In this document: positions 912 to 19,796 of the stretch, one piece after another | Layout: each line of letters begins with the position of its first letter | Numbering within the stretch: the stretch's first letter is position 1 | NCBI GenBank assembly: GCA_020438355.1 | Contig: JAGQUT010000020.1 | Location: 1-35,858 of the forward strand | DNA: 35,858 bases | Direction of reading: 5' to 3' | Origin: Solirubrobacterales bacterium | GTDB lineage: Bacteria; Actinomycetota; Thermoleophilia; Solirubrobacterales; 70-9 | Notes under the pieces: generated by a model | The model's input: the letters and a program-made list of their open reading frames with translations, nothing else | Databases searched by the model: none | Told to the model about the DNA's origin: nothing | Made by a program: the position numbers and the translations under genes

Positions 912-1961
912 TCAGAGAGTGGACAATAAGTCGGCGAGACGGGGAGCCCACCGCTGGTACGAGAACTCGTCTTCGACGAACCTTCGCGCGTTCTCTCCCA
1001 TTTGACGTCGGGTTTCCACATCCCGGATCAACTGATCGAGAGCATCCAGCCATTCTTGATCGGAGGAAGCGAGAAGGCCCCGCTCGGTACCTACGATCTC
1101 GCGGTTCACCCCGACCGGACTGGCGACCGCAGGCACCCCCGCCGAGAAATACTGGAGAAGTTTGAATCCGCACTTGCCGCGGGTCCATGGATCGTCCGGC
1201 AGAGGCATGATTCCGAGATCGAGCCCGGCGAGAAAAGCGGATTCACCCTCTTTGGTCCAGGCCTGGGTGCGGGCCCATGGGGCAGAGGTGATGTCGCCCC
1301 CGCCGACGATCACTAGTTCAAACTTCCTTCCACCGTCGTGGAGCGTCTGGAACAGCGGAAGGAGTTGGCTCAGATAAGGGACAGTGGACCGCGAACCGAT
1401 CCAGCCGATTCGCACCGTCTCGCGGTCCTCGTGCACGCGGACTGGTTGGATCGACGGATCCACGCAGGAGGGAACCACTTCGACCCACTGGCAGTGCTCC
1501 ATAGCCCGGCTAGCCAGATAGCTGTTGCCTGCGAGCACCAGCCTCGAACGTCGCGTATACGTGTGCCAGCGTTCGGCTTCCCGCTTCAACCAAGCAAAGT
1601 TACGGTTCCCGTCCATCGTCGAACCGACGAACAGTGCATCGTCAAAATCATAGATATCGAGACGAGCCGGCGGATCTATACCCGGCAGCGGAAAGAGGAA
1701 CCTAAGCCGATGGAGGAGAAAAAGTCGCCCATCTTCAACCCGGTGTCGATTAGACAGCCGGAGCGCCGCTGACCCAAGCACCCTCGCTTTGCCGCCCGCA
1801 GGCCCCGGTGAGATCACCTTCGCATACTCCGCGTCGGTCAAGGTGGAACGAACCGTGAGGCTCACCCCGCACTCTCGAAGGAACGGGGCGAACTCGATGA
1901 GTCTGACCCGGGCTCCCGGCGCCGAGGCCGGATACGCCGTTTCGGCGTGAACCGAAAGCAC
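912..1961 (-). CDS. GT4-like (GT-B fold) glycosyltransferase
   Basis: The product is 349 residues and starts at GTG 1959-1961, 12 bp after the upstream epimerase gene. The C-terminal half carries the nucleotide-sugar-binding signature of GT-B enzymes: IGWIGSRST near residue 190, then KCGFKLLQYFSAG and VPAVASPVGVNREIV near residues 260-290. That last stretch is the usual E/K...LLQY-AGVPVVAS region of GT1/GT4 enzymes. The N-terminal acceptor domain is less conserved. It has no signal peptide and should act at the cytoplasmic membrane face, adding a sugar to a lipid-linked repeat unit. It is the last gene of a minus-strand run (6172 down to 912) with another glycosyltransferase, asnB and an epimerase. 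Donor and acceptor are unknown. Confidence 0.85.
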   Translation of the reverse strand: MLSVHAETAYPASAPGARVRLIEFAPFLRECGVSLTVRSTLTDAEYAKVISPGPAGGKARVLGSAALRLSNRHRVEDGRLFLLHRLRFLFPLPGIDPPARLDIYDFDDALFVGSTMDGNRNFAWLKREAERWHTYTRRSRLVLAGNSYLASRAMEHCQWVEVVPSCVDPSIQPVRVHEDRETVRIGWIGSRSTVPYLSQLLPLFQTLHDGGRKFELVIVGGGDITSAPWARTQAWTKEGESAFLAGLDLGIMPLPDDPWTRGKCGFKLLQYFSAGVPAVASPVGVNREIVGTERGLLASSDQEWLDALDQLIRDVETRRQMGENARRFVEDEFSYQRWAPRLADLLSTL

Positions 1962-1973
1962 CTTGAGCAGCCC

Positions 1974-2993
1974 CTACTGTCCGGGGTGCGAAAAGTCGGC
2001 GCCGCCCGCCGAATCGGGATTGGCCGAGATCTCCGCAGCCGGAATCGAATCGTTCTTCTCGTGGTACTCCACGGTGCGCGCCAGTCCTTCCATCAGGTCA
2101 ACCTGCGGATCGAAGCCGAGAATCTCGCGGGCCGCGGAAATGTCGGCCAGCGAGTGAGGAATGTCGCCGGGGCGGGGATCCAGATACTGAGCAGCAAGGT
2201 CGCTTCCAGTCAACTCCCTGAGCTTGGAAAGCAGATCGTTGAGGCTGATCCGCTCGCCGCAGGCAATGTTGAAGGCCCGGCCGGCAACTCCGTCAACACT
2301 CGCCGCACGGATGTTCGCATCGACCGTATTGTCGATGAAGGTGAAGTCTCGGGATTGTTCGCCGTCGCCGTACACGATCGGGGGGCGACCCTCAAGGAAC
2401 GAAGTGATGAACTTCGGAATCACGGCCGCGTACTGCGACAGCGGATCCTGACGCGGTCCGAAGACGTTGAAATACCGGAGCGCAACGGTTTCGAGGCCGT
2501 AGACTTCGTAGAACGCCCGGCAGTATCCCTCGGCGGCCTGCTTTGCCACCGCGTACGGCGATATCGGCAGGGTGGCCATCGTTTCGACCTTGGGAAGTTG
2601 GGGATTGGCTCCGTAGACCGAGGAGGAAGAAGCGAATACGAAACGCCGCACGCCCTCGTCGCGAGCCGCCAGCAAGAGGTTCAGGGTACCGATCACATTC
2701 GACGCGTTGCTGGTCAGCGGATCTTGGATGGAGCGCGGAACCGAAGGCAAAGCCGCCTGGTGAAACACCACGTCACAGCCCCGAACGGCATTATGCGCCC
2801 GCTCATAGCTCTGCATGTCGCCTTCGATCAACTCGACATCCTCAAGCAGGTGACGTACGTTCTCCCGGCTTCCGGTGGCGAAGTTGTCGAGGATTCTCAC
2901 GTTGTGACCATCGTCCCGAAGGCGATTGGCCAGATGTGAGCCGATGAATCCCCCACCGCCGGTGACGAGCACAGTTCTGCCTGATGAAAGCAT
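1974..2993 (-). CDS. NAD-dependent sugar-nucleotide epimerase (UDP-Glc/GlcNAc 4-epimerase type)
   Basis: This 339-residue extended SDR enzyme has the Rossmann motif VTGGGGFIGSH (residues 10-20), the Ser region SSSSVYG (about 122-128) and the catalytic pair Y147-x3-K151 (YAVAK). The segment RYFNVFGPRQDPLSQYAAVI followed by PKFI, and VYGDGEQSRDFTFI, are typical of the WbpP/Gne-like UDP-N-acetylhexosamine 4-epimerase group. SDR epimerases invert C4 of UDP-sugars using bound NAD. Substrate choice between UDP-Glc and UDP-GlcNAc cannot be settled by eye. It lies between asnB (50-bp gap) and a glycosyltransferase (12-bp gap) in one transcription direction, so it most likely supplies an activated sugar to the polysaccharide pathway. 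Confidence 0.85.
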   Translation of the reverse strand: MLSSGRTVLVTGGGGFIGSHLANRLRDDGHNVRILDNFATGSRENVRHLLEDVELIEGDMQSYERAHNAVRGCDVVFHQAALPSVPRSIQDPLTSNASNVIGTLNLLLAARDEGVRRFVFASSSSVYGANPQLPKVETMATLPISPYAVAKQAAEGYCRAFYEVYGLETVALRYFNVFGPRQDPLSQYAAVIPKFITSFLEGRPPIVYGDGEQSRDFTFIDNTVDANIRAASVDGVAGRAFNIACGERISLNDLLSKLRELTGSDLAAQYLDPRPGDIPHSLADISAAREILGFDPQVDLMEGLARTVEYHEKNDSIPAAEISANPDSAGGADFSHPGQ

Positions 2994-3043
2994 CCGGGGA
3001 ATCTACCAGCGTGAATCCGAAGCAGTCGCGAGGCCGACGGACC

Positions 3044-4918
3044 CTAAAGGCTGGCAGGGCTCGAGTTCCGGCACTCGCTAAGTCTGGCCTCCCAGGCGGC
3101 GAGCGTGGCTAGGGCCCAGAGGTCGGAAGCGTGGCTCCCCAAGTCAAGGAACTCTACGGCCACAGCACCATCGACCAAGGTCGAGTCGGATTCCATGAAC
3201 CAGGATCGGGCTTCGTCCCGCCAGGGCCCGGTGAACAGACCGTGGAGGGGGACTGCGAATCCACGCTTGCGACCGCTTCTCCCGGCCGCTGGCAATTTCT
3301 CCCTTGCCAGCTTGCGAAGCGGCAGCTTGCCACCCAGCCAGGAAAGCTTTTGCCGGTCCGGCATGCGCTCGGCCACGGCGACAACGGCCTCATCCAGCAA
3401 CGGGACCCGGGCCTCGAGCCCGCACGCCATGCTGGCCCGGTCTTCCTTAGTTAGCAGATCGCCGGGGAGGTAGGTCTGCAACTCGAACCGTTGAAGTTCG
3501 CGCAACACCGAACCCGACGAAGGGTTGACCAGTCCCAGCCGCTCCGCGACCCCGGACCTGACCTGGTCCCCGCCCGGCACGTCTTGCAGAGCTCCGAGCC
3601 CGCCGTTCGAACTCATCTGGGCGACCAGAGCCAGATACTGCTCATGGTCATCGGTACCTCCGGCACGGGCGATTCGTGCGAGATAAGAGTTGGCCAACTT
3701 CAGGAGATTACGACGCTCCGCGCCTTGATCCACCGTGAGCCTTGCGAGACGATCGAGCAGACGGTCCGGCAGGTGACTCACGGCTGAGCGAAGCTTGTGG
3801 GCACGATGCCGGTAATAGCCTGCGAACAGGTCGTCCCCGCCAGTTCCGCTCATCGCCACCGTCACCTGCGAACGGGCGAGCCGGGAGAGGAAGAGGGTGG
3901 GCAGGGCAGAAGAGTCGGCAAAGGGTTGGTCGTAGGCCTGGCTCACGCCCTCGATTGCTTCGGTAAAAGTGGCGTTCATGGCTTCGACGTGGTGGGGGAT
4001 CTCTAGCGAGCGGGCCAGACGCGCCGCGCGCGTTGATTCGTCGTAGTCACCATGGCCATGGAAAGAAATGGTGAAAGCCCGGGGGCGGGCCCCGGCTTCT
4101 ACGGCCAGGGCCGCGAGCAGGGAAGAATCGACACCCCCGGAGAGAAAGATCCCTACCTCGACATCGGCTACCAGTTGCCGGGACACCGAATCCAGGAGCG
4201 CCTGGTTGAGTTCTTCGGGGTCCACATTCTCCGCTGCCGGTGGACCGTCGAAGCGCCGAGGACGCCAGCGACGCACCTCTTCGCTCCCGTCCCTTCTCCG
4301 AACCACGGCCGTCCCCGGCTCCACCTCCACCAGGTCGGCGATTCCGGTACCGGGCGATGGCACGTAGTGAAATGCCGCGTATTCGGCGATCGCCTGGCGA
4401 TCGATCTCGCCAGCGCTCAGGCCTGCGGTCACGAGCGCCAGAGCGTCAGAACCGAAGGCGAAGCGTGGCCCGGTGGTCCTGACCAGTGGTTTGATACCGG
4501 TGGCGTCACGCGCGAGTGTGATCTCGCCGCGACGTTCGTCGACCAGGGCAACCGCGAACATCCCGTTGAGTCTCGCGAACAGGGCAACGCCCCACTCCTC
4601 GTACCCGTGAACGATGACTTCGGCGTCGCAGTCGGTGCTGAACCTGTGCCCGGCCCCCTCCAGATCCCGGCGCAGATCCCCGTAACCGTAGATCTCGCCG
4701 TTGAAGAGCAGCCATAGATCCTCGGTCTCGTTGGTCATCGGGTACTCCACCCGGTCGGAGAGATCGATCACGGCCAGCCGGGTCTGAACCAGACCGTATC
4801 CCCCTCGTTGCTGGAAGAAGCGGCCATCCGGACCTCGATTCTCGAGCGAGTCGAGCAGGCTCCGGGCCAAGAGCTCGTCTCCCTCTCCGCGCAATTCGAA
4901 TCCGGCGATGCCGCACAT
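3044..4918 (-). CDS. asnB: Asparagine synthase-type glutamine amidotransferase (AsnB family)
   Basis: The 624-residue protein begins MCGIAGF, giving the N-terminal nucleophile Cys2 of class II glutamine amidotransferases. RGPDGR near residue 28 and FNGEIYGYGDLR near residue 72 complete the glutaminase domain. The synthetase domain has the PPi-loop SGGVDSS at 260-266. The length fits the usual 600-650. The family uses ATP and glutamine to amidate a carboxylate, classically aspartate to asparagine. In surface-polysaccharide loci, homologues are often proposed to amidate uronic acids. This copy sits inside such a locus together with a UDP-HexNAc dehydrogenase, so that role is plausible but inferred. 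Its ATG directly follows the TGA of the upstream glycosyltransferase (4918/4919), indicating tight coupling. Confidence 0.9.
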   Translation of the reverse strand: MCGIAGFELRGEGDELLARSLLDSLENRGPDGRFFQQRGGYGLVQTRLAVIDLSDRVEYPMTNETEDLWLLFNGEIYGYGDLRRDLEGAGHRFSTDCDAEVIVHGYEEWGVALFARLNGMFAVALVDERRGEITLARDATGIKPLVRTTGPRFAFGSDALALVTAGLSAGEIDRQAIAEYAAFHYVPSPGTGIADLVEVEPGTAVVRRRDGSEEVRRWRPRRFDGPPAAENVDPEELNQALLDSVSRQLVADVEVGIFLSGGVDSSLLAALAVEAGARPRAFTISFHGHGDYDESTRAARLARSLEIPHHVEAMNATFTEAIEGVSQAYDQPFADSSALPTLFLSRLARSQVTVAMSGTGGDDLFAGYYRHRAHKLRSAVSHLPDRLLDRLARLTVDQGAERRNLLKLANSYLARIARAGGTDDHEQYLALVAQMSSNGGLGALQDVPGGDQVRSGVAERLGLVNPSSGSVLRELQRFELQTYLPGDLLTKEDRASMACGLEARVPLLDEAVVAVAERMPDRQKLSWLGGKLPLRKLAREKLPAAGRSGRKRGFAVPLHGLFTGPWRDEARSWFMESDSTLVDGAVAVEFLDLGSHASDLWALATLAAWEARLSECRNSSPASL

Positions 4919-7400: not shown

Positions 7401-9335
7401 TCAGGGATTGACTTCGCCCTCGGCGACCAGCCTGGCCAGCCCCGGGTCCCGCGGATTGAGGTGGAGGGCGCGGCGGTAGTAGCGCTGCGCTTCCTGCGTG
7501 AGGCCGCGCCGGGTGGCGAGGTCGCCGAGCAGACCCCAAGCGACGAAATCGTGGGGTCCGTTACGCGTTGCTTCCAGTAGTGCGTCACGTGCCGGCCCGT
7601 AGAGACCGAGACGGGCGAGGGCCGCCGACTCCATGTAGTACGAGCGCTGGGATGGCTCAAGGGCGATTGAGTCCCGGGCGTCGACCAGTGCCGAGACCGG
7701 GTCGGTCGCAAGCTTCTCGGCTGCCTGCGACTGAAGTTGCTGCGCGCGCAGCTGCTTCAGCACCGGGAAGGAGATGACCACTACCAGCAGGGCGGCCATT
7801 CCAATCGCCGGAACCGAGTATCTGCTCTCCAGGGGCCGCATCGCAGGCAGCAGCACCGCGGCCGCGCAGATCGCGATCGCGGTCAGGCCCGGCAGCAGGT
7901 GCATCCAGTCCACACTGGTGTGGAATAACCAGACGAAGAAGGTTCCTCCAGCTGCCACGGCCAGCGCCGGTTCGGCGCTTCGCCGAGTGGTAGTACCCCT
8001 GGCGGTGTTCCAAAGTCCGAAAAGGACCGCGCACACAAACGCAGTCAGAGCGACGCCTCCGACCAGGCCCAGTTCGCCCAGGGTCTGCAGTTCAATGCTG
8101 TGGGCCTGCTGAACATCTTCGGAAGTCCTTCGCTCCTGAAAGTACGTCTCCGTGTAGTTGCCCGCCCCGACTCCAGCCAAGGGGTTATCTTCGAACTGCT
8201 TGAAAGCAACCCGCCAGTAGTCATATCGGTTGCCTCCCCCGGAGGTCAGGCGGGAGTCGCCGTCGGTCTCATCGAGGCTGGTAAAGGAGTCGACCTGTTC
8301 CCGGATCTGGTCGGAGCGACTACCAACCCCGAGTACCATCCCGCCCAGGACGATCACGCAGATCACGGCGAGCCCCACACCAGAGATCACGCTCAGGCCG
8401 TAGCGGGCATCGGGAGATCCACGCTCGATGCGGGCCGAGATCGCGCTTCCGGCCGCGACCAGCAGTCCGCTGACGATGCCGCCGAGCAAGCCCATCCAGA
8501 CGACTGGCCTGAGCGAGTCGATCGAGAGAGCGCCCGCTCCGGTGTCGATCACTTCCCGCAGCGCCGGTCCGCATATCGCGATCCCGCCGAGGACCGCGAC
8601 CAGGATCCAAGCTCTGCCAGTGCGACCGGGCACGATGGCCATGATCAATACGGTGGACGCGACGAGCGCCAAGATGGCTCCGCGGCTCTGGGTGAGCACC
8701 GTAAGGACGACCAGCTGGACCGCTCCGAAGGCCGCAAGGCCCCGGACCGCGTGATTGCGGGCTCGCTCGGCGACAGCGACGAGTGGCCAGAGCCCAGCCA
8801 GGAGGTAGGTGGCGACCCCGTTTATGTAGTCGAGGGGGCTATTCAGGCGATTAGCCACGAAGAGTTCCTGAACCGCAGAATCATCGACGAGCAGGCGAAT
8901 CTGGAGATACGCCGCCATGACCAGGACGCCTGTCGTAGTCGCGCCGATAAGCACCTTCCGGGAGGACGAATCCCGAACCAGGTAGAGCAAGACCATCAGG
9001 AGCACCCCATAGAGCAGCCAGCGGGCACCGTCGGTGACCGCGAGGTCACCGAGCTCGGCCCACCGGGTCGAGGCCAGTGCCCAGAAACCTAGTGCGAATA
9101 ACCCTGCTGCACCCAGCGCCGAGGCCCCTTGCGGAATGGCGGGTCGAGCGACCACAAACGCCAGCAGGATCACCAATCCGGCCAGCAGCATCGGCTCCCA
9201 GACTGTGGCACGGTAGAAACCGAAAAAGAACGCGCTCGAACCAGCGCCTAACCCGATCAGTCCGAGAACCGCAAGCCGAAAGGCGTTGCCGGAAGTCGGG
9301 GCCGGTGAGGTCGGTGAAGTACTCTCTCTAACCAT
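7401..9335 (-). CDS. O-antigen ligase/WzyC-family membrane protein with C-terminal TPRs
   Basis: The 644-residue protein has roughly a dozen hydrophobic segments (residues about 20-540). The conserved WzyC-type region is GGNRYDYWRVAFKQFEDNPL, then AGVGAGNYTETY near residues 375-405, including the Arg/Asp-rich loop after a large periplasm-like region. HSIELQTLGELGLVGG follows. A soluble tail (about 545-640) carries TPR-like helical repeats (SYYMESAALARLGLYGPARD; RRALHLNPRDPGLARL). The family moves lipid-linked glycans onto an acceptor or polymerises them. In a non-LPS organism the acceptor is unknown. Its ATG (9333-9335) overlaps the ATG of the divergent gene at 9334, and no in-frame alternative lies upstream. 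The TPR tail suggests protein partners. Confidence 0.85.
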   Translation of the reverse strand: MVRESTSPTSPAPTSGNAFRLAVLGLIGLGAGSSAFFFGFYRATVWEPMLLAGLVILLAFVVARPAIPQGASALGAAGLFALGFWALASTRWAELGDLAVTDGARWLLYGVLLMVLLYLVRDSSSRKVLIGATTTGVLVMAAYLQIRLLVDDSAVQELFVANRLNSPLDYINGVATYLLAGLWPLVAVAERARNHAVRGLAAFGAVQLVVLTVLTQSRGAILALVASTVLIMAIVPGRTGRAWILVAVLGGIAICGPALREVIDTGAGALSIDSLRPVVWMGLLGGIVSGLLVAAGSAISARIERGSPDARYGLSVISGVGLAVICVIVLGGMVLGVGSRSDQIREQVDSFTSLDETDGDSRLTSGGGNRYDYWRVAFKQFEDNPLAGVGAGNYTETYFQERRTSEDVQQAHSIELQTLGELGLVGGVALTAFVCAVLFGLWNTARGTTTRRSAEPALAVAAGGTFFVWLFHTSVDWMHLLPGLTAIAICAAAVLLPAMRPLESRYSVPAIGMAALLVVVISFPVLKQLRAQQLQSQAAEKLATDPVSALVDARDSIALEPSQRSYYMESAALARLGLYGPARDALLEATRNGPHDFVAWGLLGDLATRRGLTQEAQRYYRRALHLNPRDPGLARLVAEGEVNP

Positions 9336-9903
9336 GGATATCGATGTTCAAGCCTATTCAACTGATGCTGGCCACGGCGACCCGACGAGGTCGGCCCCGA
9401 CCGCACGGGCGCAACTTCTCCGACTAACGGGGGGGCGGTTCACATTGCTCGTTGTCAGCGTCATGCTCGCCGCGCTAGCTGGAAGTTACAGTCAGGCTAA
9501 AGCAGTCGTACACGTCGATCCTTCGGGTCCCGCCGGCCAGCAATACGCACTACCACTGGACTCGGTACGGGGGCTGGTCAGCGGCAATCCATCGGCAGGA
9601 GTGCCTGGTTCGCAGTCTGAACCGCCTGTTCTGTTCGGGGAAGGAGTCCGTCCGGCGTCGTCGTCATCGAAAAAGTTTCGACCGGAAGTCGCCGATCGAG
9701 CCGGGACCAATAACGGCAACCAGGTGGTAGGAAAGCAGAGCCCGGTCCGCTCCGATAGGGACGATTCCGTCGAAGACCAGATTGCCGCGCTCACCGGGGA
9801 TGACGAGTCAGGAACTGCAGGCGCCTCCGGAATACTGGCGGTTATCGCCGGGATGATGGTGCTCGGCTTGAGCGCCGGATGGCTGGGGCGCCGCGCGCTC
9901 TGA
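9334..9903 (+). CDS. Hypothetical secreted or membrane-anchored protein with C-terminal TM and Arg tail
   Basis: I do not recognise this 189-residue protein. From ATG 9334 it has about 35 polar residues, then a hydrophobic stretch (FTLLVVSVMLAALAGSY) that could be a signal anchor, then a polar Ser/Pro/Gly-rich middle. It ends with a second hydrophobic helix (GILAVIAGMMVLGLSAGWLG) and RRAL. The order small-residue linker, helix, basic tail resembles C-terminal sorting or anchoring signals. I see no LPXTG or PEP motif and no sortase in the window. Start choice is uncertain: a TTG at 9286 would extend into the divergent ligase gene, and an internal TTG just before the hydrophobic segment would give a short signal peptide. 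It lies in the polysaccharide locus upstream of two secreted glycosidases. Confidence 0.6.
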   Translation: MDIDVQAYSTDAGHGDPTRSAPTARAQLLRLTGGRFTLLVVSVMLAALAGSYSQAKAVVHVDPSGPAGQQYALPLDSVRGLVSGNPSAGVPGSQSEPPVLFGEGVRPASSSSKKFRPEVADRAGTNNGNQVVGKQSPVRSDRDDSVEDQIAALTGDDESGTAGASGILAVIAGMMVLGLSAGWLGRRAL

Positions 9904-10052
9904 TCGGGAGAACAGTCCGCAACGGCGAAACCTCCCTCCCGGTTTCGAAACGAGTCGGATTCTCGCCGCTACGTTTCGGGTCGCACCGTGTTTGAGAAGT
10001 TATCTGCCTAGCCACCCCTTTGTCCAATTTTCTTCAACCGAAAGACATTCTT

Positions 10053-11195
10053 GTGACCGAGCTTTTCCCTGGAACTCCTTCCGGAGTTCGACCTCAACGC
10101 CGGGCTCCCTTCGCCCTGATTTCCCTAGTTGCGATTGCCACGATTCTGCTTGCGTTTTTTTTCGCCGCGGGAAGGGCGGAAGCCGCGCCCAGCCTGCGTA
10201 AGGCGATCTGGGGTCCGGCAACGCCCCAGGCATTCAATCGCTATTCCCAGTTGGGCGTAGGCATTTACCAGATGTCAATCTCCTGGGCTTCGGTCGCCGC
10301 GACCAAGCCGGCCCAACCGCGCAACCCCAAGGATCCCGCCTATGCGTGGCTGGACGAACTCGATACCGCGATCAAGCTGGCCAAGCCACGCGGCATCCGG
10401 GTCGCCGTAAACATCACCTTTTCGCCACGCTGGGCAAACGGCAACCGCCAGCGCCGGTGGGCGCCCAAGCGTCCCGCGGATTTCGCGAACTTCGTCGCGG
10501 CCACAGTCAAGCGCTACCCGTATGTGCGGTATTGGATGATCTGGAGCGAGCCCTCGCGGAGGGCCAACTTTCTGCCGTTGGCACGGGTCACCGGCAAGCG
10601 TCAGCTAAGCCGCAAGGAGCAGGTCGGACCCAGAACTTACGCGCGAATCCTCGATTCCGGCTACAAGGCCGTGAAATCTGTCAATCCCAACGACTTTGTC
10701 ATCGGTGGAAATACGATCCCCGGCGGAAGCATCAGGCCACTACGATTCATCCAGGCAATGCGGTTGCCAAACGGTAGGCCACCCCGCATGGACCTTTACG
10801 GACACAACGCGTACTCGCCCCGGTTCCCCAAACTTTCTCGTCGTCCGGCGGCCTTCGGAACAGCAGATCTCTCGGACTTCGACACTCTTGCTCGGTGGCT
10901 CGACCGATACCTTGGGCGAGCGGGACGCAACCACCGGCTGAAGATATTCGTTTCGGAGTACTCGTTGCCGACGAGCCGGAACGCCGTAATCCCATTCTGG
11001 GGCAACAGACGCGATCAGGCCCGTTACGCGGCGGGCGCTTTGCGATTGACCCGTAACTTTGAGCGCTCCTACTCTCTGGGTTGGTTTCAGCTAATGGATC
11101 AGCCGCCGCAAAGGGACAATCTGGAGGCAGACTGGGGCCTGCTGACTTGGCGTGGTCAGATCAAACCGGCGTTCTGGGCCTTTAAGCGAGGATGA
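10053..11195 (+). CDS. Secreted clan-A glycoside hydrolase (PslG/GH39-like), copy 1
   Basis: A (beta/alpha)8 glycosidase with an N-terminal signal peptide (hydrophobic PFALISLVAIATILLAFFF, then AGRAEAAPS as a likely cleavage zone). The acid/base Glu lies in YWMIWSEPS (codon 10548-10550), matching the N/S-E-P motif ending strand 4 of clan A. The nucleophile Glu lies in IFVSEYSLP (codon 10956-10958), matching strand 7. I use GTG 10053, with a weak GAAAGA upstream; TTG 10020 adds 11 residues. Hydrolases of this shape occur in exopolysaccharide operons (PslG of Pseudomonas), where they cut the polymer in the periplasm or outside the cell. Its stop overlaps the next gene as ATGA (11192-11195), and that gene is a paralogue. 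The specific sugar linkage is unknown. Confidence 0.8.
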   Translation: MTELFPGTPSGVRPQRRAPFALISLVAIATILLAFFFAAGRAEAAPSLRKAIWGPATPQAFNRYSQLGVGIYQMSISWASVAATKPAQPRNPKDPAYAWLDELDTAIKLAKPRGIRVAVNITFSPRWANGNRQRRWAPKRPADFANFVAATVKRYPYVRYWMIWSEPSRRANFLPLARVTGKRQLSRKEQVGPRTYARILDSGYKAVKSVNPNDFVIGGNTIPGGSIRPLRFIQAMRLPNGRPPRMDLYGHNAYSPRFPKLSRRPAAFGTADLSDFDTLARWLDRYLGRAGRNHRLKIFVSEYSLPTSRNAVIPFWGNRRDQARYAAGALRLTRNFERSYSLGWFQLMDQPPQRDNLEADWGLLTWRGQIKPAFWAFKRG

Positions 11196-12391
11196 AAGTG
11201 AAAGCCAACTGGTTGAATACTCGGAACACGAAACGGACGCGATTTTCGATGAGTGGCCTTTGCCTGTCGGCCGCATTTCTATTGTTTGTCAGCCTCGCCT
11301 GCGTCTCTGGCGGGTCGAGCTTTGGAGTTTCGGCACTAGGTGCTGCCCAAGCCGACACCCCTGCGAAGGCTTCATCCGCTCAGCGCCTGGGCAAGGCGAT
11401 GTGGGGTCCCCCCGTAGTGAACGGAGAATCCCAGTTTCCCGTTTATCGTGACCTCGGAGCTGGCATCTATCAAATGGCCGTGGATTGGAGTCAAATTGCG
11501 CTAACGAAGCCAGATCGCCCGACCGATCCTGCCGATCCAAGCTATCAGTGGCCAGAGTACCTGGACTCGACCATCAAGGAAGCAAACCGCTACGGGATGA
11601 GGGTGATGATGATGGTCATCGGAGCGCCCGCGTGGGCAAATGGTGGGTATCGCGACCGTGCCTGGACTCCCAAGAACCCACACCAGTACGGAAATTTCGT
11701 ATATGCCATGTCCAAGAAATACCCACGTATTCGGTATTGGATGGTTTGGGGCGAGCCCAACCGTTCTGTGAACTACAGGCCCCTGACCCCATACCGAGGT
11801 ACTGGCCGGTTGAACAACGCTCAATCTAGAGCGCCCCGGAACTATGCACGAATCCTAGACATCGCCTACGGTTCGTTAAAGCGAGCGGACCCAAAGGACT
11901 TGGTTATCGGTGGCAACACCTATACAGCCGCAGGTAGAGACAGTATCTCTACGTATCCTTGGATCAAGTACATGAGGTTGCCTAACGGCCGCAGACCCAG
12001 GATGGATCTCTACGGACACAACCCGTTTGGGTTCCGAATTCCTAACCTTGCCGACAAGCCGTCTCCAAGAGGCATGGTCGACTTCTCTGATTCGAGGCGT
12101 CTCGTCAAGGTGCTGGATCGCTACTACCCAGGTAAGAAACTTCGTCTCTTCCTCTCTGAGTGGGGTGTCCCCGCCGGAGACACTCTGGACGGCGAATTAG
12201 GGTTTAGATTGAACTTCCAACAACAGGCTAAATGGATCAGGGCAGGCCTGCGAGTCAGCCGAAACTTCAAACGGATCTACACGATCGGCTGGATTCACCC
12301 CTACGACCGGCCTGACTTGGACATCACTACCGGGCTGATGAAAGCTGATGGAACCAAGAAACCCGGATACCACGCCTTCCGCAATGGCTGA
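11192..12391 (+). CDS. Secreted clan-A glycoside hydrolase (PslG/GH39-like), copy 2
   Basis: This 399-residue paralogue of the preceding gene shares a block-by-block layout: GKAMWGPP versus RKAIWGPA, GAGIYQMAVDWSQIALTKP versus GVGIYQMSISWASVAATKP, and MRLPNGRRPRMDLYGHNPF versus MRLPNGRPPRMDLYGHNAY. The acid/base Glu188 is in WMVWGEPN and the nucleophile Glu323 in LFLSEWGVP. A signal peptide (LCLSAAFLLFVSLACVSGG) targets it outside; the Cys could alternatively be a lipobox, since LAC is followed by V, but this is weak. It starts within the stop of copy 1 (ATGA), so the pair is translationally coupled. Its codons use more A/T-ending triplets than copy 1, suggesting a different history or relaxed selection. 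Confidence 0.8.
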   Translation: MKVKANWLNTRNTKRTRFSMSGLCLSAAFLLFVSLACVSGGSSFGVSALGAAQADTPAKASSAQRLGKAMWGPPVVNGESQFPVYRDLGAGIYQMAVDWSQIALTKPDRPTDPADPSYQWPEYLDSTIKEANRYGMRVMMMVIGAPAWANGGYRDRAWTPKNPHQYGNFVYAMSKKYPRIRYWMVWGEPNRSVNYRPLTPYRGTGRLNNAQSRAPRNYARILDIAYGSLKRADPKDLVIGGNTYTAAGRDSISTYPWIKYMRLPNGRRPRMDLYGHNPFGFRIPNLADKPSPRGMVDFSDSRRLVKVLDRYYPGKKLRLFLSEWGVPAGDTLDGELGFRLNFQQQAKWIRAGLRVSRNFKRIYTIGWIHPYDRPDLDITTGLMKADGTKKPGYHAFRNG

Positions 12392-13535: not shown

Positions 13536-14564
13536 TTGGCTGACGCGTTACGCATAGCTGCGGCATTTTCAACCAGCTTGGCCGTCACCTGGTGCTTGGT
13601 ACCGATAGCGATACGGATGGCCGCCAGAACTGATTTCTACGATCACCCGGGTGGATACAAGGAACACGCTCGCTCCACCCCGTACCTCGGTGGACTTGCC
13701 GTAACCACCGGTTTCCTGGTCGCCGCGATCATCTTTGGCTGGGCGAGCGACGAGGTGCTTGTCCTGGTCTTGGGCGTTCTCGTCTTGCTGGCGGTCGGCA
13801 CCGCAGACGACAGAGTGGGCCTCGGAATAATTCCGAGGATCCTGATCGAAGTGGGCGTCGCTGCGGCGGTGTGGTTTTGCGGGTTCGGATGGGACCTGTT
13901 CAGCTCGGGCGCGCTTGATTTCTTGTTCACCATTGCTTGGGTGGTGGGACTGATCAACGCTTTCAATCTGATGGATAATCTCGACGGCGCGACCGCAACG
14001 GTTGCTGCCGCCAGCGCCGCGGGGGCCGGTGGCTTGGCGCTGGCGCAGGGTGGTGTGCTGCTCGCCGCCGTCGGGTTCTCGCTGGCGGGTGCCTGCGCCG
14101 GCTTTCTGCCGCACAACTTGGCCAAGCCGGCCAAGATCTTTCTCGGCGACGGAGGAAGCATGCCGGTCGGGTTCGCGATCGCCGTCATCACTATGACGAT
14201 TCCCTTTGGTTCCGGAAGCCTGATCGCCTTTGCTCTTGCATGTCTGGTGGTGGCCGTTCCGATACTCGACATGGCTGCGGTAATAATCTCGCGCCGGCAA
14301 CGCGGTGTTGGAGTCTTCGTGGGTGGCCGGGATCACATGACACACCGGCTCTTCCGGTACATCGACTCGGAGCGTGGCGTGTCGGCAGTGCTTTTCGCGG
14401 CACAGGGATCCCTGTGCGGTCTCGCCGTCGTGCTCATCGAAACCTCTCGGGGTGTCCTGGTGGTAGCTGTTTCAGCCTTTTCTCTGGTACTTGCAGCCTT
14501 GGCCCTTGCGTACTTGGAAACTCTGGCGACTGGAATTCCCAAACCCGGGCGCGGAGACACCTGA
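13536..14564 (+). CDS. Polyprenyl-phosphate N-acetylhexosamine-1-phosphate transferase (WecA/TagO/MraY superfamily)
   Basis: The 342-residue, roughly ten-helix membrane enzyme has the family signatures in order: GTADDRVGL with Asp91-Asp92, NAFNLMDNLDG at 141-151, KIFLGDGGSMPVGF at about 200-213, and the His-rich loop GGRDHMTHRL at 263-272. The family moves HexNAc-1-phosphate from a UDP-sugar to undecaprenyl (or decaprenyl) phosphate, the first committed step of a lipid-linked repeat unit. It is the only initiating enzyme seen in the locus; no WbaP/WcaJ type is present. The start is TTG 13536-13538. A possible -10 TACAAT lies at 13463-13468 but without a good -35. It converges on the wzx-like gene with a 4-bp gap and no hairpin. 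Confidence 0.9.
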   Translation: MADALRIAAAFSTSLAVTWCLVPIAIRMAARTDFYDHPGGYKEHARSTPYLGGLAVTTGFLVAAIIFGWASDEVLVLVLGVLVLLAVGTADDRVGLGIIPRILIEVGVAAAVWFCGFGWDLFSSGALDFLFTIAWVVGLINAFNLMDNLDGATATVAAASAAGAGGLALAQGGVLLAAVGFSLAGACAGFLPHNLAKPAKIFLGDGGSMPVGFAIAVITMTIPFGSGSLIAFALACLVVAVPILDMAAVIISRRQRGVGVFVGGRDHMTHRLFRYIDSERGVSAVLFAAQGSLCGLAVVLIETSRGVLVVAVSAFSLVLAALALAYLETLATGIPKPGRGDT

Positions 14565-14568
14565 AACC

Positions 14569-16005
14569 TCAAGACGGCCGGTTTCGAGATCGGGTCTTGA
14601 CGACAGGAGCGAGAAACATAGTCGCCCCGCAGAGCAGGGTCGCGGCGCCAATCGGGATTGCTAATGTGGTCTCCATGGAGGCAGGTATGCCGAGAAGCGT
14701 TGCCAGAACGACTCCAGCGACCAGAGGTGCCGATGCCCACAATGACCTTGACAGTGCGAGCCATGCTAAGGCCCCACCGAAGAGGCCGACCGTGGTTGCG
14801 ATGGCCGCGCCGTAGGTTCCGTAAAGCGGAATCAGCACGCTCATCAGGGCGATATTTAGACCCCCCGCAATCGCACCGCCTACGAAGAACTGCCAGTTGC
14901 GCTGTTCCCCGATCAAGCTGTATCCGGCGGGGTACCCGATCGAGTAGATCGGCAACGACATACAAAGCAGGATGAGCAGCGGTCCGGTATCGGCGAAGTC
15001 CGCTCCAAACAGTCCCTCCAGCACCGGGCCGCCGATTAGTTCGGCTGCTCCGAGAACGATCAGACCGTAGCCTGCTAGCGGAGTGAAGGCCCGCAGCAAC
15101 AAGCTCCGCTTCTCGTGCATTCTACCCTCATGATGGCTGCGTGAGAGCATCGGCAGCAACGAGTAGGCGGCGAAGAGGGTCACCGCGTTCGCGGCGAGGA
15201 AGAGTCTGTAGGGAGCACTGTATAGGCCAGCCTCTGCATCTGAACGGAGGATCGCGAGGAGAATCGAATCGAGGTTGGCATACGAGGCATAGATGATGAT
15301 GCCGGATGCACCGAGCGGCCAGTTCGCAACAACTACCTGCTTGATGCGTTCCCAGGAGGGCATCTCGACCCGTCCCAACTTGGCCCGCCACCAAGTTGCG
15401 GCCGCAGCCGATGCCTCGCCCAGCACGAAGACGATGAGTGCGGCAGTCGCCGTCGGCAGAAGGAACACCAGTGAACCACATCCGACCATGACCACTATTC
15501 CGCCGAGCGCTGTGGCTCCGGCAGCGTCAGCCATTTGCTCGCGCCCTCTGAGGAGCCAGTCGCCCGAAGTCGATAGTCCGACGGCCATGGCGACGCTTAA
15601 GGTGATCAGAACCAGCTGATCCGACAGAAAGATGGCGGCAGCGCCGATCATCACAAGTGCGATACCAGCCAGCGCTCCGACTCGCACGGAAAGAACCACG
15701 CCAGCAACGCGCTTCGCGTCCCCAGGAGCAACGGCGACCTGTCGCGCGCCGTACTCGGGCATGCCGAGTGCGGTCAGGGTGAGCAGAATGCCGGCGATCG
15801 CGATCCCCACGTTGACGATGCCGAAATCACTCAGGCTTAGGGTTCGGGCAAGGATCACGGCGGCAACGAACCGGGTGATCTTGTTCACGGCTTCGCCTGC
15901 CGCTAGCTTCGAAATCGACTTGCCGGCCTGTCGCAGGCTCCCTCCGATAGAAGTCACGGGTCCAGCCTCAGGTTCTTTCCCCTGCCCGGAACGGGCATTG
16001 CTCAT
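14569..16005 (-). CDS. Lipid-linked oligosaccharide flippase (Wzx-like, MOP/MATE superfamily)
   Basis: The 478-residue protein has about 14 hydrophobic segments and no soluble domain, as expected for the polysaccharide transporter branch of the MOP exporters. The N-terminal stretch GEAVNKITRFVAAVILARTL then SLSDFGIVNVGIAIA is the classical opening of this family (few-Gly helix, then the R-x-L-x-x-x-x-F/Y-G motif). It should flip the undecaprenyl-PP repeat unit across the membrane for polymerisation. It follows the Wzy-like gene on the same strand, 25 bp downstream, so the two are likely co-transcribed. The start ATG 16003-16005 has no clear Shine-Dalgarno. Confidence 0.9.
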   Translation of the reverse strand: MSNARSGQGKEPEAGPVTSIGGSLRQAGKSISKLAAGEAVNKITRFVAAVILARTLSLSDFGIVNVGIAIAGILLTLTALGMPEYGARQVAVAPGDAKRVAGVVLSVRVGALAGIALVMIGAAAIFLSDQLVLITLSVAMAVGLSTSGDWLLRGREQMADAAGATALGGIVVMVGCGSLVFLLPTATAALIVFVLGEASAAAATWWRAKLGRVEMPSWERIKQVVVANWPLGASGIIIYASYANLDSILLAILRSDAEAGLYSAPYRLFLAANAVTLFAAYSLLPMLSRSHHEGRMHEKRSLLLRAFTPLAGYGLIVLGAAELIGGPVLEGLFGADFADTGPLLILLCMSLPIYSIGYPAGYSLIGEQRNWQFFVGGAIAGGLNIALMSVLIPLYGTYGAAIATTVGLFGGALAWLALSRSLWASAPLVAGVVLATLLGIPASMETTLAIPIGAATLLCGATMFLAPVVKTRSRNRPS

Positions 16006-16030: not shown

Positions 16031-18247
16031 TCAACACGACGTTCGCTTCAATGAAAGGTCGTCAACTTCGAGACTGCCCGAAATCGCAACCTCACCGGTG
16101 TCTAGAGCGAACACTCTCATGCTTGACACTTCGTCTTCAACGATTGCTCTGGTGGAAAGTCGCCGCCAAGATGTTGAGACAGGTGCTACACCGGCGCCCC
16201 ATCGCCCCAAAATCATCTGTAGCACGGAATTGCCATCACTATCGATGAAGCTGACCCATACATAGACTGGTCGAGACAAGTTGCTGCTGCGTACCCAAGC
16301 GCTGAAGGTGAAGCACGCATTTGCTGAGGTGCGCACCGGAAGTGCTTGGTCCAATAACGCGAGTGAACCCGCAAAGCCCGAGCCGACGAAGAGGAACGCG
16401 GAGCCGCCTTCTCGGTCTGTCTTAGAAAGGGAGCCTGAACCTACTTCACCCGGGGTATACGACCAGTGCCGGAGCCTCTGATTGAATCCTCCGTTCGCGA
16501 TTAGCTCATCTCCGATCCGTGCCACCCCACCTGCCGTGATGGTAATCTTCTCACCCGCCTTACTCTTTGTTAAGGTAATGAAGCCGGCGCTGTCAGAGAC
16601 CGCACGGAGGGTTAGCTTATCACCATCAGTGAAGACACTGATCGTTTCCGGATCAGGCAAATCCAAAGCATCATGACGTCCGACGAATTTGGTCGCGGGA
16701 TCATTCACGTGCAGCTGTGAGGCGAGTGCTTCGGGGGTAGGGAAACCATCTTTTCGCTGCGTGCGCTCCGCCAGCGCGGCGACTGTCCGGAGCTTCTTGA
16801 TTAGGTCCTGGCGAGACTCGGGTAGACGTTCGGGGGCGTCTGCCGTAAGGACACCCCACAGACTAAGCCCCACGACAAGAGCCGCCGCACCTGCGAGGAA
16901 TCCTGCCAACTTTGGTCGGAGACGCGCAGTTTGGCGCAATCGCCGAATAACCTCAGATGGCCCAAGATCGCTTCGGATCAGGGGTGCGATTACCAACCCG
17001 ACTAAGAGATACTCTGAAACTAACGTATCGAAGAACTTGTAAACGTCAAAGCTGAGTGCGACGCAGTACAGAAGTAACGATCCGGTCCACACGCTCAGTA
17101 GCGTTCTTCTTCGAATGGCTCGGATCACTATCGTGGTGGAAATAAATGCAAACAAGAACGGTAGGAACAAGACACCGAACCAACCGAAGTCAGTGTAGAA
17201 GACGCCCAGCCAAGAATAGTTGTTAAAAGTCTCGAATGGGATGGGATAGAAAGCGCCGACCATCTCCGCAGGTTCCCCCCAAAACCCGAGCGCGTGCAGG
17301 ACCTTGATCGCTGAATTAAATGTTAGTTCGCCGTTGGTTTCGGGTCGTATGGGGTCATCAACCAGCCCGGCGAACGCGGGGACGTGAGCGGTTGCGTATA
17401 CGTAGGGAAGTGCGACCGAGTCGAATGATCGAGTGTTGAGCACGCTCGCGATTTCAGGGTGGCTTTCGACAGTCTTCCCCACTCGATTGCCCAAGAAGCT
17501 GAAAATTACGACAAGGGAAGCCGCAGCCACGGCAGTGCCAAGCGCAAGCCGGCGAAGCCTGTTGGGGGGAATGTAGAGGAGTTGGAAGGCTCCAGCCCAT
17601 ACTAGCGCGGCAAACATCAGCGTTCGGTCTCCGGTGAACAAGAACGGAACTAAGGACAGGACCCCCAACGACTGCGCAGGACGCCATCGTCCTTGGAAGA
17701 CTCGCTCTCGGAGTCCCAGGGTCCAAAGTACGAAGGCGATCTGGTTGAAGTAAGTCAACAGCTTCCAAGGGCCATACGTATCTGAAAACTGAAGGCTGGT
17801 TGTCTGAATCCCCCGAACCAATTCGGGGTCCTCATAGATGGCTCGCCATCCCAACACAACATCTACCGCGTGGACATAAGCAGCAAATCCAACGAGACCC
17901 AGTACTGCGAAGAAGATCCAAGTATTCCTGAGCCTGCGAGGATCTGGGCGCTGTCTTCCGCTCTCTTCCACCCTGGGAAGTTTCCGAAAGTGTCGTTCAG
18001 CGAGTAGAGATCCAGCAATGAATGTCACTATGGAGCCATACACCATTAGCCACACGGTTGCGGAGGTCGTGGAGTACTCGACTAAGGGCAGCGCAAAGAG
18101 GACTAGCGCGATCCCCCAAACCAAGCAGAAGACACCCAAGGTGGTCAGCACGCCGTCGCCGCGACGTTGAGACCTGAGTGAAGTGAAGACCGCGATGGCC
18201 AGGAGCAGGCAGCCGACAGCCAGCGCGACCCAGCGTTCAGGCGTCAT
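16031..18247 (-). CDS. Wzy-like O-antigen/oligosaccharide-unit polymerase with extracytoplasmic C-terminal domains
   Basis: A 738-residue protein. Residues 1-425 are an approximately 11-helix membrane domain with the pattern of oligosaccharide repeat-unit polymerases, including FNNYSWLGVFYTDFGWFGVL at about 341-360. A further hydrophobic helix at 447-467 (LAGFLAGAAALVVGLSLWGV) leads to a region (about 470-575) whose shape resembles pilin-like globular domains (DLIKKLRTVAALAERTQRKD, then GFPTPEALASQL). Residues about 579-738 look like a jelly-roll carbohydrate-binding module: ELIANGGFNQRLRHWSY opening, CFTFSAWVRSS, and GSLEVDDLSLKR closing, typical of CBM4/9-like folds. Ordinary Wzy proteins lack such tails. 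Its base composition is less G/C-rich than its neighbours. The domain calls beyond the polymerase are inferred by eye. Confidence 0.75.
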   Translation of the reverse strand: MTPERWVALAVGCLLLAIAVFTSLRSQRRGDGVLTTLGVFCLVWGIALVLFALPLVEYSTTSATVWLMVYGSIVTFIAGSLLAERHFRKLPRVEESGRQRPDPRRLRNTWIFFAVLGLVGFAAYVHAVDVVLGWRAIYEDPELVRGIQTTSLQFSDTYGPWKLLTYFNQIAFVLWTLGLRERVFQGRWRPAQSLGVLSLVPFLFTGDRTLMFAALVWAGAFQLLYIPPNRLRRLALGTAVAAASLVVIFSFLGNRVGKTVESHPEIASVLNTRSFDSVALPYVYATAHVPAFAGLVDDPIRPETNGELTFNSAIKVLHALGFWGEPAEMVGAFYPIPFETFNNYSWLGVFYTDFGWFGVLFLPFLFAFISTTIVIRAIRRRTLLSVWTGSLLLYCVALSFDVYKFFDTLVSEYLLVGLVIAPLIRSDLGPSEVIRRLRQTARLRPKLAGFLAGAAALVVGLSLWGVLTADAPERLPESRQDLIKKLRTVAALAERTQRKDGFPTPEALASQLHVNDPATKFVGRHDALDLPDPETISVFTDGDKLTLRAVSDSAGFITLTKSKAGEKITITAGGVARIGDELIANGGFNQRLRHWSYTPGEVGSGSLSKTDREGGSAFLFVGSGFAGSLALLDQALPVRTSANACFTFSAWVRSSNLSRPVYVWVSFIDSDGNSVLQMILGRWGAGVAPVSTSWRRLSTRAIVEDEVSSMRVFALDTGEVAISGSLEVDDLSLKRTSC

Positions 18248-18512: not shown

Positions 18513-19796
18513 TTGAACGTTTCGTCTCCGGCAAGGGAGTTCCGGAAAATCGGCATTGTCGGACTGGGTTACGTGGGTTTGCCACTTGCCGTCGCCTTCG
18601 CAGAGTCGGGCCGTCAAATTGTCGGCCTCGATAGCAATCCCAACAAGATCGAATCCCTGAACCGAGGCGCGAGCTACATCGAGGACATCTCCTCCGCCAC
18701 ACTTGAGCCGCTCAAGGATCGAATTCGAGCGACCAGCGATTACACCGAGCTAGCCGAATGTGACGCGGTGATCATTTGCGTTCCGACGCCTTTGACGGGC
18801 TCCCGCGAGCCCGACCTGACCTACCTCGAAGCGGCCGTAGAAGACATCAGCGAGGTGTTGCAGCCGGGGCAGACGATTGTGCTCGAGTCCACCACGTATC
18901 CCGGGACCACCCGAGATCTCGTCGCGACCAAGCTAGAGACCGACGGTCGGCAGGCAGGGGAGGACTTCTTCCTCGCGTTCTCGCCGGAACGCATCGACCC
19001 GGGCCGGACCGATTACACGGTGCGAACCACACCTAAACTGGTCGGCGGCCTGACCGAGGCCTGCGGAATCAACGCGGTCGCGCTGTATGAGACCATCTGC
19101 GATCGTGTAGTTCAGCTTTCCAGCCCGGAATCCGCCGAGCTCTCGAAGCTGCTCGAGAACATTTTCCGCTCCGTCAACATTGCGATGGTGAACGAGCTGG
19201 CCCAGCTCTGCAGCCGGCTCGGAGTCGACATCTGGGAGGTCGTTGATGCCGCTTCGACGAAGCCGTTCGGTTTCATGCGGTTTGATCCCGGTCCCGGAAT
19301 GGGCGGACATTGCCTCCCGGTTGACCCCTTCTACCTCGCATTCAAGGCACGAGAGCTGGATTTCTACCCGGAATTCATCGAGCTTGCGGGCAAGATCAAC
19401 CAGTCGCAGCCTCTGTTCTGCGTCAACCGGATTGAGCGTCTGTTGAACGAAAACGGCAAGGCCGTAAGCAACTCCAGGATCCTTATTCTGGGCGTAAGCT
19501 ACAAAGCAGGCGTGGGCGATACGAGGGAGTCACCCGCGATCAAGATCGTCAGGCTGCTGAGGGAACTGGGTGCGGATGTCCGTTACCACGACCCGCATGT
19601 GCCAGAGCTGAAGGAAGCCGGGATCAGCAACTCGCCGGATCTCGAGGCAGCCCTCGCCGAAGCGGAACTCAGCGTGATCATCACCGCCCATCCCGAGTTC
19701 GACTGGCGAGAGGTGATCGACAAGAGCGAGCTCGTCTTCGACCTTCGTGGAGTGACGAGAGAGTTCCCGGACAACGGGAACGTGACAAGGCTCTGA
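18513..19796 (+). CDS. UDP-N-acetylhexosamine 6-dehydrogenase (WbpA/WecC-type nucleotide-sugar dehydrogenase)
   Basis: The 427-residue enzyme opens with a Rossmann NAD site (GIVGLGYVGLPLAVAFAESG). ESTTYPGTT and FSPERIDPG are typical of the UDP-GlcNAc/ManNAc branch rather than plain UDP-Glc dehydrogenases. The catalytic Cys267 lies in GMGGHCLPVDPFYL. A C-terminal UDP-binding domain follows (GVSYKAGVGDTRESPAI). It oxidises C6 of a UDP-HexNAc to a carboxylate, giving a uronic-acid donor. The TTG start (18513-18515) is preceded by AAGAAAGGA at 18496-18504. The 265-bp region upstream, shared with the divergent Wzy-like gene, has a TTGACT at 18314 but no good -10 partner. The membrane protein downstream is only 7 bp away. 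Confidence 0.88.
   Translation: MNVSSPAREFRKIGIVGLGYVGLPLAVAFAESGRQIVGLDSNPNKIESLNRGASYIEDISSATLEPLKDRIRATSDYTELAECDAVIICVPTPLTGSREPDLTYLEAAVEDISEVLQPGQTIVLESTTYPGTTRDLVATKLETDGRQAGEDFFLAFSPERIDPGRTDYTVRTTPKLVGGLTEACGINAVALYETICDRVVQLSSPESAELSKLLENIFRSVNIAMVNELAQLCSRLGVDIWEVVDAASTKPFGFMRFDPGPGMGGHCLPVDPFYLAFKARELDFYPEFIELAGKINQSQPLFCVNRIERLLNENGKAVSNSRILILGVSYKAGVGDTRESPAIKIVRLLRELGADVRYHDPHVPELKEAGISNSPDLEAALAEAELSVIITAHPEFDWREVIDKSELVFDLRGVTREFPDNGNVTRL

What the first reader, a model, noticed from the sequence alone, without database searches (positions are those of the whole stretch)
16031..18247. Wzy-type polymerase fused to a pilin-like region and a carbohydrate-binding-like domain
Seen: after the membrane domain (1-425) there is another helix (447-467) and about 270 soluble residues, the last about 160 with the opening, core and closing pattern of CBM4/9-like jelly rolls. 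Known: Wzy proteins are normally only membrane domains. Inferred: the tail holds the growing glycan, perhaps measuring or directing chain length, in place of the missing Wzz-type co-polymerase (none is seen in the window).
Basis: partly seen in the sequence, partly recalled or inferred. Interest (0 to 1): 0.7.

Follow-up and report, generated by a model that had tools for sequence, protein, structure and literature searches.

The report
Sugar-chain polymerase with sugar-binding tail
An uncultured bacterium of the order Solirubrobacterales carries an enzyme that joins sugar units into long surface chains, and to it are fused an extra membrane anchor and two outside domains, the last folded like known sugar-binding modules, which could let the enzyme hold its own product.

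Summary
Window 16031-18247 (minus strand) is one unbroken 738-aa ORF: a Wzy-type polymerase (TIGR04370, 1.3e-24, above cut-off), an extra membrane helix (449-467) and about 270 extracytoplasmic residues. It is no frameshift: two congeneric genomes carry the same full-length protein (60-61% identity), with purifying selection on both tail domains. A predicted model makes residues 582-738 a CBM4/16/22-type jelly roll (Z 11-12 over whole modules), although no CBM model passes its curated cut-off. Residues 471-575 are a confidently modelled helix-plus-sheet domain; 'pilin-like' fits its topology only (no sequence support, no prepilin motif, no pilins in the genus). This domain is the older part: three homologues in another family keep it without a recognisable jelly roll. 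The tail lies on the side of the large outer loop, so a glycan-handling accessory of the polymerase is the best reading. A second Wzy lineage has a different outside tail, fused in one genome and a separate overlapping gene in another, which supports such tails as Wzy partners. 'In place of Wzz' is unproven: Wzz is absent from all 18 genomes of the genus, but present in the other tailed genomes. Novelty: new variant of a known kind.

The parts
16031..18247 (-). whole gene: tailed Wzy-type polymerase, 738 aa
   Evidence: single ORF; full-length orthologues L049 and L050 at 60-61%
16973..18247 (-). residues 1-425: Wzy membrane domain, about 11 membrane helices, large outside loop about 253-356
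   Evidence: TIGR04370 37-406, E 1.3e-24; hydropathy and positive-inside reading; invariant residues incl. R180, R187, R189, D207, R208, R255
16904..16972 (-). residues 426-448: cytoplasmic basic linker (7 R/K in 425-448)
16847..16903 (-). residues 449-467: extra membrane helix, crosses in to out
   Evidence: hydropathy 2.02; found at the same place in all homologues; sequence drifts (omega about 1.1)
   Evidence: AlphaFold tail model, pLDDT 67-92 in blocks over model residues 11-100; conserved in six genomes of two families; no profile match to pilins
16034..16504 (-). residues 582-738: CBM4/9/16-type jelly roll, opening NGGF motif, closing VDDLSL, conserved Cys645 and Cys738
14569..16005 (-). 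Wzx-type flippase, 25 bp downstream of the polymerase gene; within the genus a close orthologue (80%) occurs only in the same three genomes
   Evidence: Polysacc_synt 3.7e-23
13536..14564 (+). WecA/MraY-like initiating phosphoglycosyl transferase
   Evidence: PF00953 1.4e-24, TIGR02380 3.4e-28 below cut-off
7401..9335 (-). O-antigen ligase (Wzy_C) protein with C-terminal TPR tail, second polymerase/ligase of the cluster
   Evidence: PF04932 1.1e-15, TPR_14 1.9e-6
18513..19796 (+). nucleotide-sugar dehydrogenase (UDP-ManNAc/GlcNAc type by best equivalogs, below their cut-offs); suggests an acidic sugar in the repeat
   Evidence: TIGR03026 2e-129, above cut-off

Best explanation
This is a Wzy polymerase with a built-in extracytoplasmic accessory module. 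The membrane domain joins lipid-linked repeat units, flipped by the neighbouring Wzx, on the outer face of the membrane. An extra helix leads the chain back out and anchors an alpha/beta domain close to the catalytic face; the terminal CBM-type jelly roll most likely binds the growing polysaccharide (or the same polymer already on the surface), keeping it near the active site, which would favour repeated additions or hold the chain for hand-over to the ligase. Shown: one protein, its domains, its side of the membrane by the positive-inside rule, the jelly roll in a predicted model, purifying selection. Inferred: glycan binding, and the effect on processivity or hand-over.
For: TIGR04370 match above cut-off; full-length orthologues and purifying selection on each tail domain (omega 0.21 and 0.18 between two orthologues); topology puts the tail on the side of the large outer loop; jelly roll fold with CBM structures at Z 11-12 over 131-143 residues and weak but long matches to CBM_4_9; polysaccharide gene cluster around it, kept in part around homologues in another family; the helix plus alpha/beta domain follows this Wzy clade across two families; in a second Wzy lineage a single-span outside protein is fused to Wzy in one genome (L009) and is a separate gene overlapping wzy in another (L097; 31% identity, pairwise E 3e-12), which suggests that such modules are functional partners of Wzy.
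Against: No glycan-binding residue could be tested; jelly rolls of this kind also bind proteins or serve as spacers (MAM domains and phage tail proteins are among the matches). The jelly roll is missing in two complete homologues. pLDDT of the jelly roll is moderate (about 65; below 50 for its first 50 residues).
Confidence: 0.5

Rival explanations
1. The tail is a covalent substitute for the Wzz co-polymerase: it sets modal chain length by holding the chain until a given length.
For: No PF02706 in the genome or in any of 18 genomes of the genus, against 162 of 232 in the order; membrane-anchored alpha/beta domain next to Wzy; one published hypothesis for Wzz itself is that it binds the growing chain (PMC10030265).
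Against: The three homologues in another family have the helix and alpha/beta domain although their genomes have Wzz; tail and Wzz loss not associated (p = 0.37); the tail has one helix, not two, and no PF02706 match.
Confidence: 0.2
2. The jelly roll anchors the polymerase, or retains finished polymer, at the cell surface: it binds cell wall or finished glycan and localises synthesis, without effect on chain length.
For: CBM-type fold; a related jelly roll occurs in a Calx-beta protein of the same order (G133 contig 240).
Against: Its position on the polymerase, on the same side as the large outer loop, suggests a role at the active face; no binding data.
Confidence: 0.2
3. The tail is a protein-docking platform that recruits the O-antigen ligase-TPR protein (7401-9335) or the GH-like proteins of the cluster.
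For: These genes stay together with wzy in L051 and in the congeneric L050; jelly rolls and MAM domains also bind proteins (own knowledge).
Against: No direct evidence of interaction; carbohydrate-binding modules are the largest group among the fold matches.
Confidence: 0.09
4. Artefact: frameshift or assembly fusion of two genes, or a tail without function.
For: None beyond the rarity of the architecture.
Against: Same reading frame in three assemblies, dN/dS about 0.2 in both tail domains.
Confidence: 0.01

Closest known systems
TIGR04370 oligosaccharide repeat unit polymerases (Wzy)
   Same: Membrane domain over its whole length, above curated cut-off; next to a Wzx flippase in a polysaccharide cluster
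   Different: Members without extensions in the order end at about 470-500 aa (L008, L010); here an extra helix and 270 outside residues follow
CBM4/9, CBM16 and CBM22 carbohydrate-binding modules
   Same: Predicted jelly roll aligns to whole modules at Z 10-12; NGGF opening and DDLSL closing
   Different: These normally sit on secreted glycoside hydrolases (own knowledge); the sequence scores stay below the CBM_4_9 cut-off; ligand residues untested
Wzz / polysaccharide co-polymerases (PF02706)
   Same: Membrane-anchored alpha/beta domain on the outer side that is expected to work with Wzy
   Different: One helix, covalently joined, no PF02706 match; oligomeric state unknown
O-antigen ligase/Wzy_C proteins with TPR tails (also in this window, 7401-9335)
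   Same: Multi-span glycan polymerase/ligase with a soluble C-terminal extension
   Different: The extension there is a TPR helical repeat, on another family of membrane domain
Type IV pilins of Solirubrobacterales
   Same: Order of membrane helix, helix, short helix and strands
   Different: No prepilin cleavage motif, no profile similarity, no N_methyl pilins found in this genus

Membership tests
Wzy, TIGR04370 | score above curated cut-off over most of the model | tested here: met
   86.9 bits against 40, model 12-381 of 396
Wzy, TIGR04370 | 10-14 membrane helices with large outside loop(s) | tested here: met
   about 11 helices before the extra one, outside loop 253-356, by hydropathy only; 10-14 helices in PMC12004945
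Wzy, TIGR04370 | polymerase activity on lipid-linked repeats | not testable with these tools
   needs biochemistry
CBM_4_9 (PF02018) carbohydrate-binding module | score above Pfam gathering cut-off | tested here: not met
   best 19.9 bits against 25.9 in the orthologue L050; no CBM_4_9 match in the window copy
CBM_4_9 (PF02018) carbohydrate-binding module | beta-sandwich jelly roll over the whole module | tested here: met
   predicted model only: Z 11.6 to CBM4-2 2y64, 140 residues, 2.7 A; Z 11.5 to CBM16 2zey
CBM_4_9 (PF02018) carbohydrate-binding module | ligand-binding aromatic residues and glycan binding | not tested
Wzz / PCP (PF02706) | PF02706 match | tested here: not met
   no match at E <= 1 in the protein or its tail
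Wzz / PCP (PF02706) | two membrane helices flanking an outside domain | tested here: not met
   a single helix precedes the tail, which ends outside
Type IV pilin | prepilin class III signal (G/FTLIE) before the helix | tested here: not met
   sequence PKLAGFLAGAAALVVGL has no such motif; no Pfam N_methyl match
Type IV pilin | sequence similarity to pilins of the order | tested here: not met
   hhalign probability about 0.5% at best against an alignment of Solirubrobacterales pilins collected here
Type IV pilin | pilin fold of the soluble domain | tested here: inconclusive
   order of helices and strands agrees, but the structure searches were filled by the jelly roll

The most novel reading that the evidence does not exclude
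A family of Wzy polymerases carries its own, single-span, extracytoplasmic co-polymerase (fused here, a separate overlapping gene in a related lineage), which binds the nascent chain and sets its length in bacteria or clusters without Wzz.
Probability: 0.2. Interest if true: 0.8.

Novelty: new variant of a known kind. Interest (0 to 1): 0.5.

Why it matters
How Wzy stays on a growing chain and stops at a given length is an open question that is usually studied through the separate Wzz oligomer. A polymerase with a fused domain of glycan-binding type on the outer face would let polymerisation and product holding be studied in one polypeptide, with natural variants that lack the jelly roll as controls.

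Tried and rejected
Protein as a single-sequence query in genome contigs found nothing; the alignment found the five homologues. No relatives in viral contigs. No sequence match in the PDB for the whole tail, and none of note for the alpha/beta domain (best E 0.11) or the jelly roll (best E 1.1). PHROGs: nothing. The beta tail of G231 as a diverged copy of the jelly roll: profile comparison gives no support (0.2%), left open. The first AlphaFold job, full length, was poor (pLDDT 51), and its structure matches are used only as a weak check. Literature searches for a Wzy fused to a carbohydrate-binding domain found none, but the library lacks most subscription journals.

Full report
What is there. 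The finding lies on the minus strand. Window 16031-18247 is one ORF of 738 codons with an ATG start. Residues 37-406 match TIGR04370, oligosaccharide repeat unit polymerase, with E 1.3e-24 and 86.9 bits against a cut-off of 40. Hydropathy with the positive-inside rule gives about eleven helices, the basic loops at 84-109, 228-233, 376-381 and 425-448 inside, the large loop about 253-356 outside, and an extra helix at 449-467 that leads the rest of the chain outside (the number of helices between 129 and 206 is my reading, with one taken at about 162-180 that the scan missed and one at 188-206 that it found in the orthologues). The tail is therefore on the side where Wzy enzymes polymerise (inference from family knowledge; 10-14 helices and large outside loops are described in PMC12004945).

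It is one protein, not an artefact. Two genomes of the same genus carry the same full-length protein (60-61% identity; G010 and G012, named MAGs HKST-UBA64 and HKST-UBA63 of Solirubrobacterales). Between these two, dN/dS is 0.13 in the membrane domain, 0.21 in the alpha/beta domain and 0.18 in the jelly roll, but about 1.1 in the linker and helix (45 codons, so rough), where only hydrophobicity seems kept.

The jelly roll. Isolated, the domain gives weak but long matches to CBM_4_9 in both orthologues (E 0.00099 and 0.0043) and to MAM (0.0019); the window copy matches Laminin_G_3 (0.046) and, as a whole protein, NF048003, phage spike fibre domain (2.7e-4). None reaches its curated cut-off. An AlphaFold model of residues 471-738 from six sequences has moderate confidence here (about 65, below 50 for the first 50 residues of the domain), yet Foldseek finds CBM structures at E down to 1.1e-6, and VIA-align places residues 582-738 on phage tail-spike end domains (Z 12.9), the hyaluronan-binding module 4d0q (11.8), CBM4-2 (11.6, 140 residues, 2.7 A) and CBM16 (11.5). 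These Z values exceed what the tool describes as common background (7-8). Two cysteines, 645 and 738, are invariant in the three copies and could form a disulfide, which was not tested.

The alpha/beta domain. Residues 471-575 are modelled with block pLDDT of 67-92, mostly above 74, as two helices followed by strands. But profile comparison gives a probability of about 0.5% at best, there is no prepilin motif before the helix, no N_methyl protein in this genome and none in the 18 genomes of the genus. I treat 'pilin-like' as a likeness in topology only. The structure searches were filled by the jelly roll, so the fold of this domain was not tested by itself.

Evolution. Profiles found three more homologues, in another family of the order: G133 (576 aa), G101 (573 aa) and G231 (5' end cut by the contig). 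All keep the extra helix and the alpha/beta domain; G101 and G133 end there; G231 has another beta-rich-looking tail without detectable similarity to the jelly roll. The helix plus alpha/beta domain is thus the older companion, and the jelly roll on this polymerase is known only from the genus. About 400 genomes drawn from the class (tail profile) and from the phylum (whole profile) gave no further full homologue, so the type is rare.

Context. The gene lies 25 bp upstream of a Wzx flippase; around them are a WecA-like transferase, a nucleotide-sugar dehydrogenase, epimerases, glycosyl transferases, an amidotransferase, a methyltransferase, GH-like proteins and an O-antigen ligase with TPR tail. 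Much of this set recurs around the homologues in the other family. Within the genus, a close flippase orthologue occurs in exactly the three genomes with the tailed Wzy, so this is an accessory polysaccharide cluster.

Wzz. PF02706 is absent from the window's genome (97% complete) and from all 18 genomes of the genus, but present in 162 of 232 genomes of the order. But the three tailed genomes of the other family have Wzz genes, so tail and Wzz loss are not associated (p = 0.37; genomes are related, so the test is rough). The 15 congeneric genomes without the tailed Wzy also lack a close copy of this flippase, so they say little. The replacement idea is neither shown nor excluded.

A parallel case. 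In G062 another TIGR04370 protein (L009, 750 aa) has, after its own extra helix, an unrelated tail of about 280 residues. In G140 (L097) a relative of this tail is a separate 324-aa protein with one N-terminal hydrophobic stretch, whose gene overlaps the start of wzy by about 4 bp; it is 31% identical to the L009 tail over about 150 residues (pairwise E 3e-12), and the polymerases are 42% identical. A module found both fused and as a coupled neighbour gene is classic evidence of joint function, and it strengthens the view that outside tails of Wzy in this order are accessory subunits.

Verdict. Observation confirmed; interpretation partly supported. Most likely the tail is an outside accessory of the polymerase whose end domain handles glycan (0.5). 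That it is a stand-in for Wzz is possible (0.2). No published Wzy with a CBM-type tail was found in the library, which is not proof of absence.

Noticed in passing
L097 (G140), minus strand 2754-3728, and L009 (G062), 1477-3729: A single-span outside protein is a separate gene overlapping wzy in one genome and fused to Wzy in another (31% identity).
   Followed up: partly
L016 (G002, same genus), 1009-3612: 867-aa ORF: Wzy-like membrane domain (weak TIGR04370 match, below cut-off) fused to a glycosyl transferase (Glycos_transf_1 662-824, E 3.5e-25).
   Followed up: no
L022 (G074) 10-2253 and L011 (G090) 1-1863: Flippase-like N-terminal half fused to a Wzy-like half in one ORF (my reading of the sequence; Wzy part).
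   Followed up: no
window 7401-9335: O-antigen ligase-type protein with C-terminal TPR, next to a small protein (9286-9903) without family; similar genes stand together in L051.
   Followed up: no
window 10020-12391: Two adjacent, related GH-like proteins (weak Cellulase and Apiosidase matches) that recur beside the homologous clusters.
   Followed up: no
genus of the window (18 genomes): No type IV pilin N_methyl proteins and no Wzz found in any genome of the genus, although most other genera of the order have them.
   Followed up: partly
L051 1323-2096 and L052 7336-7983: A small lipoprotein-like protein encoded on the opposite strand just before the tailed wzy in both genomes of the other family.
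   Followed up: no
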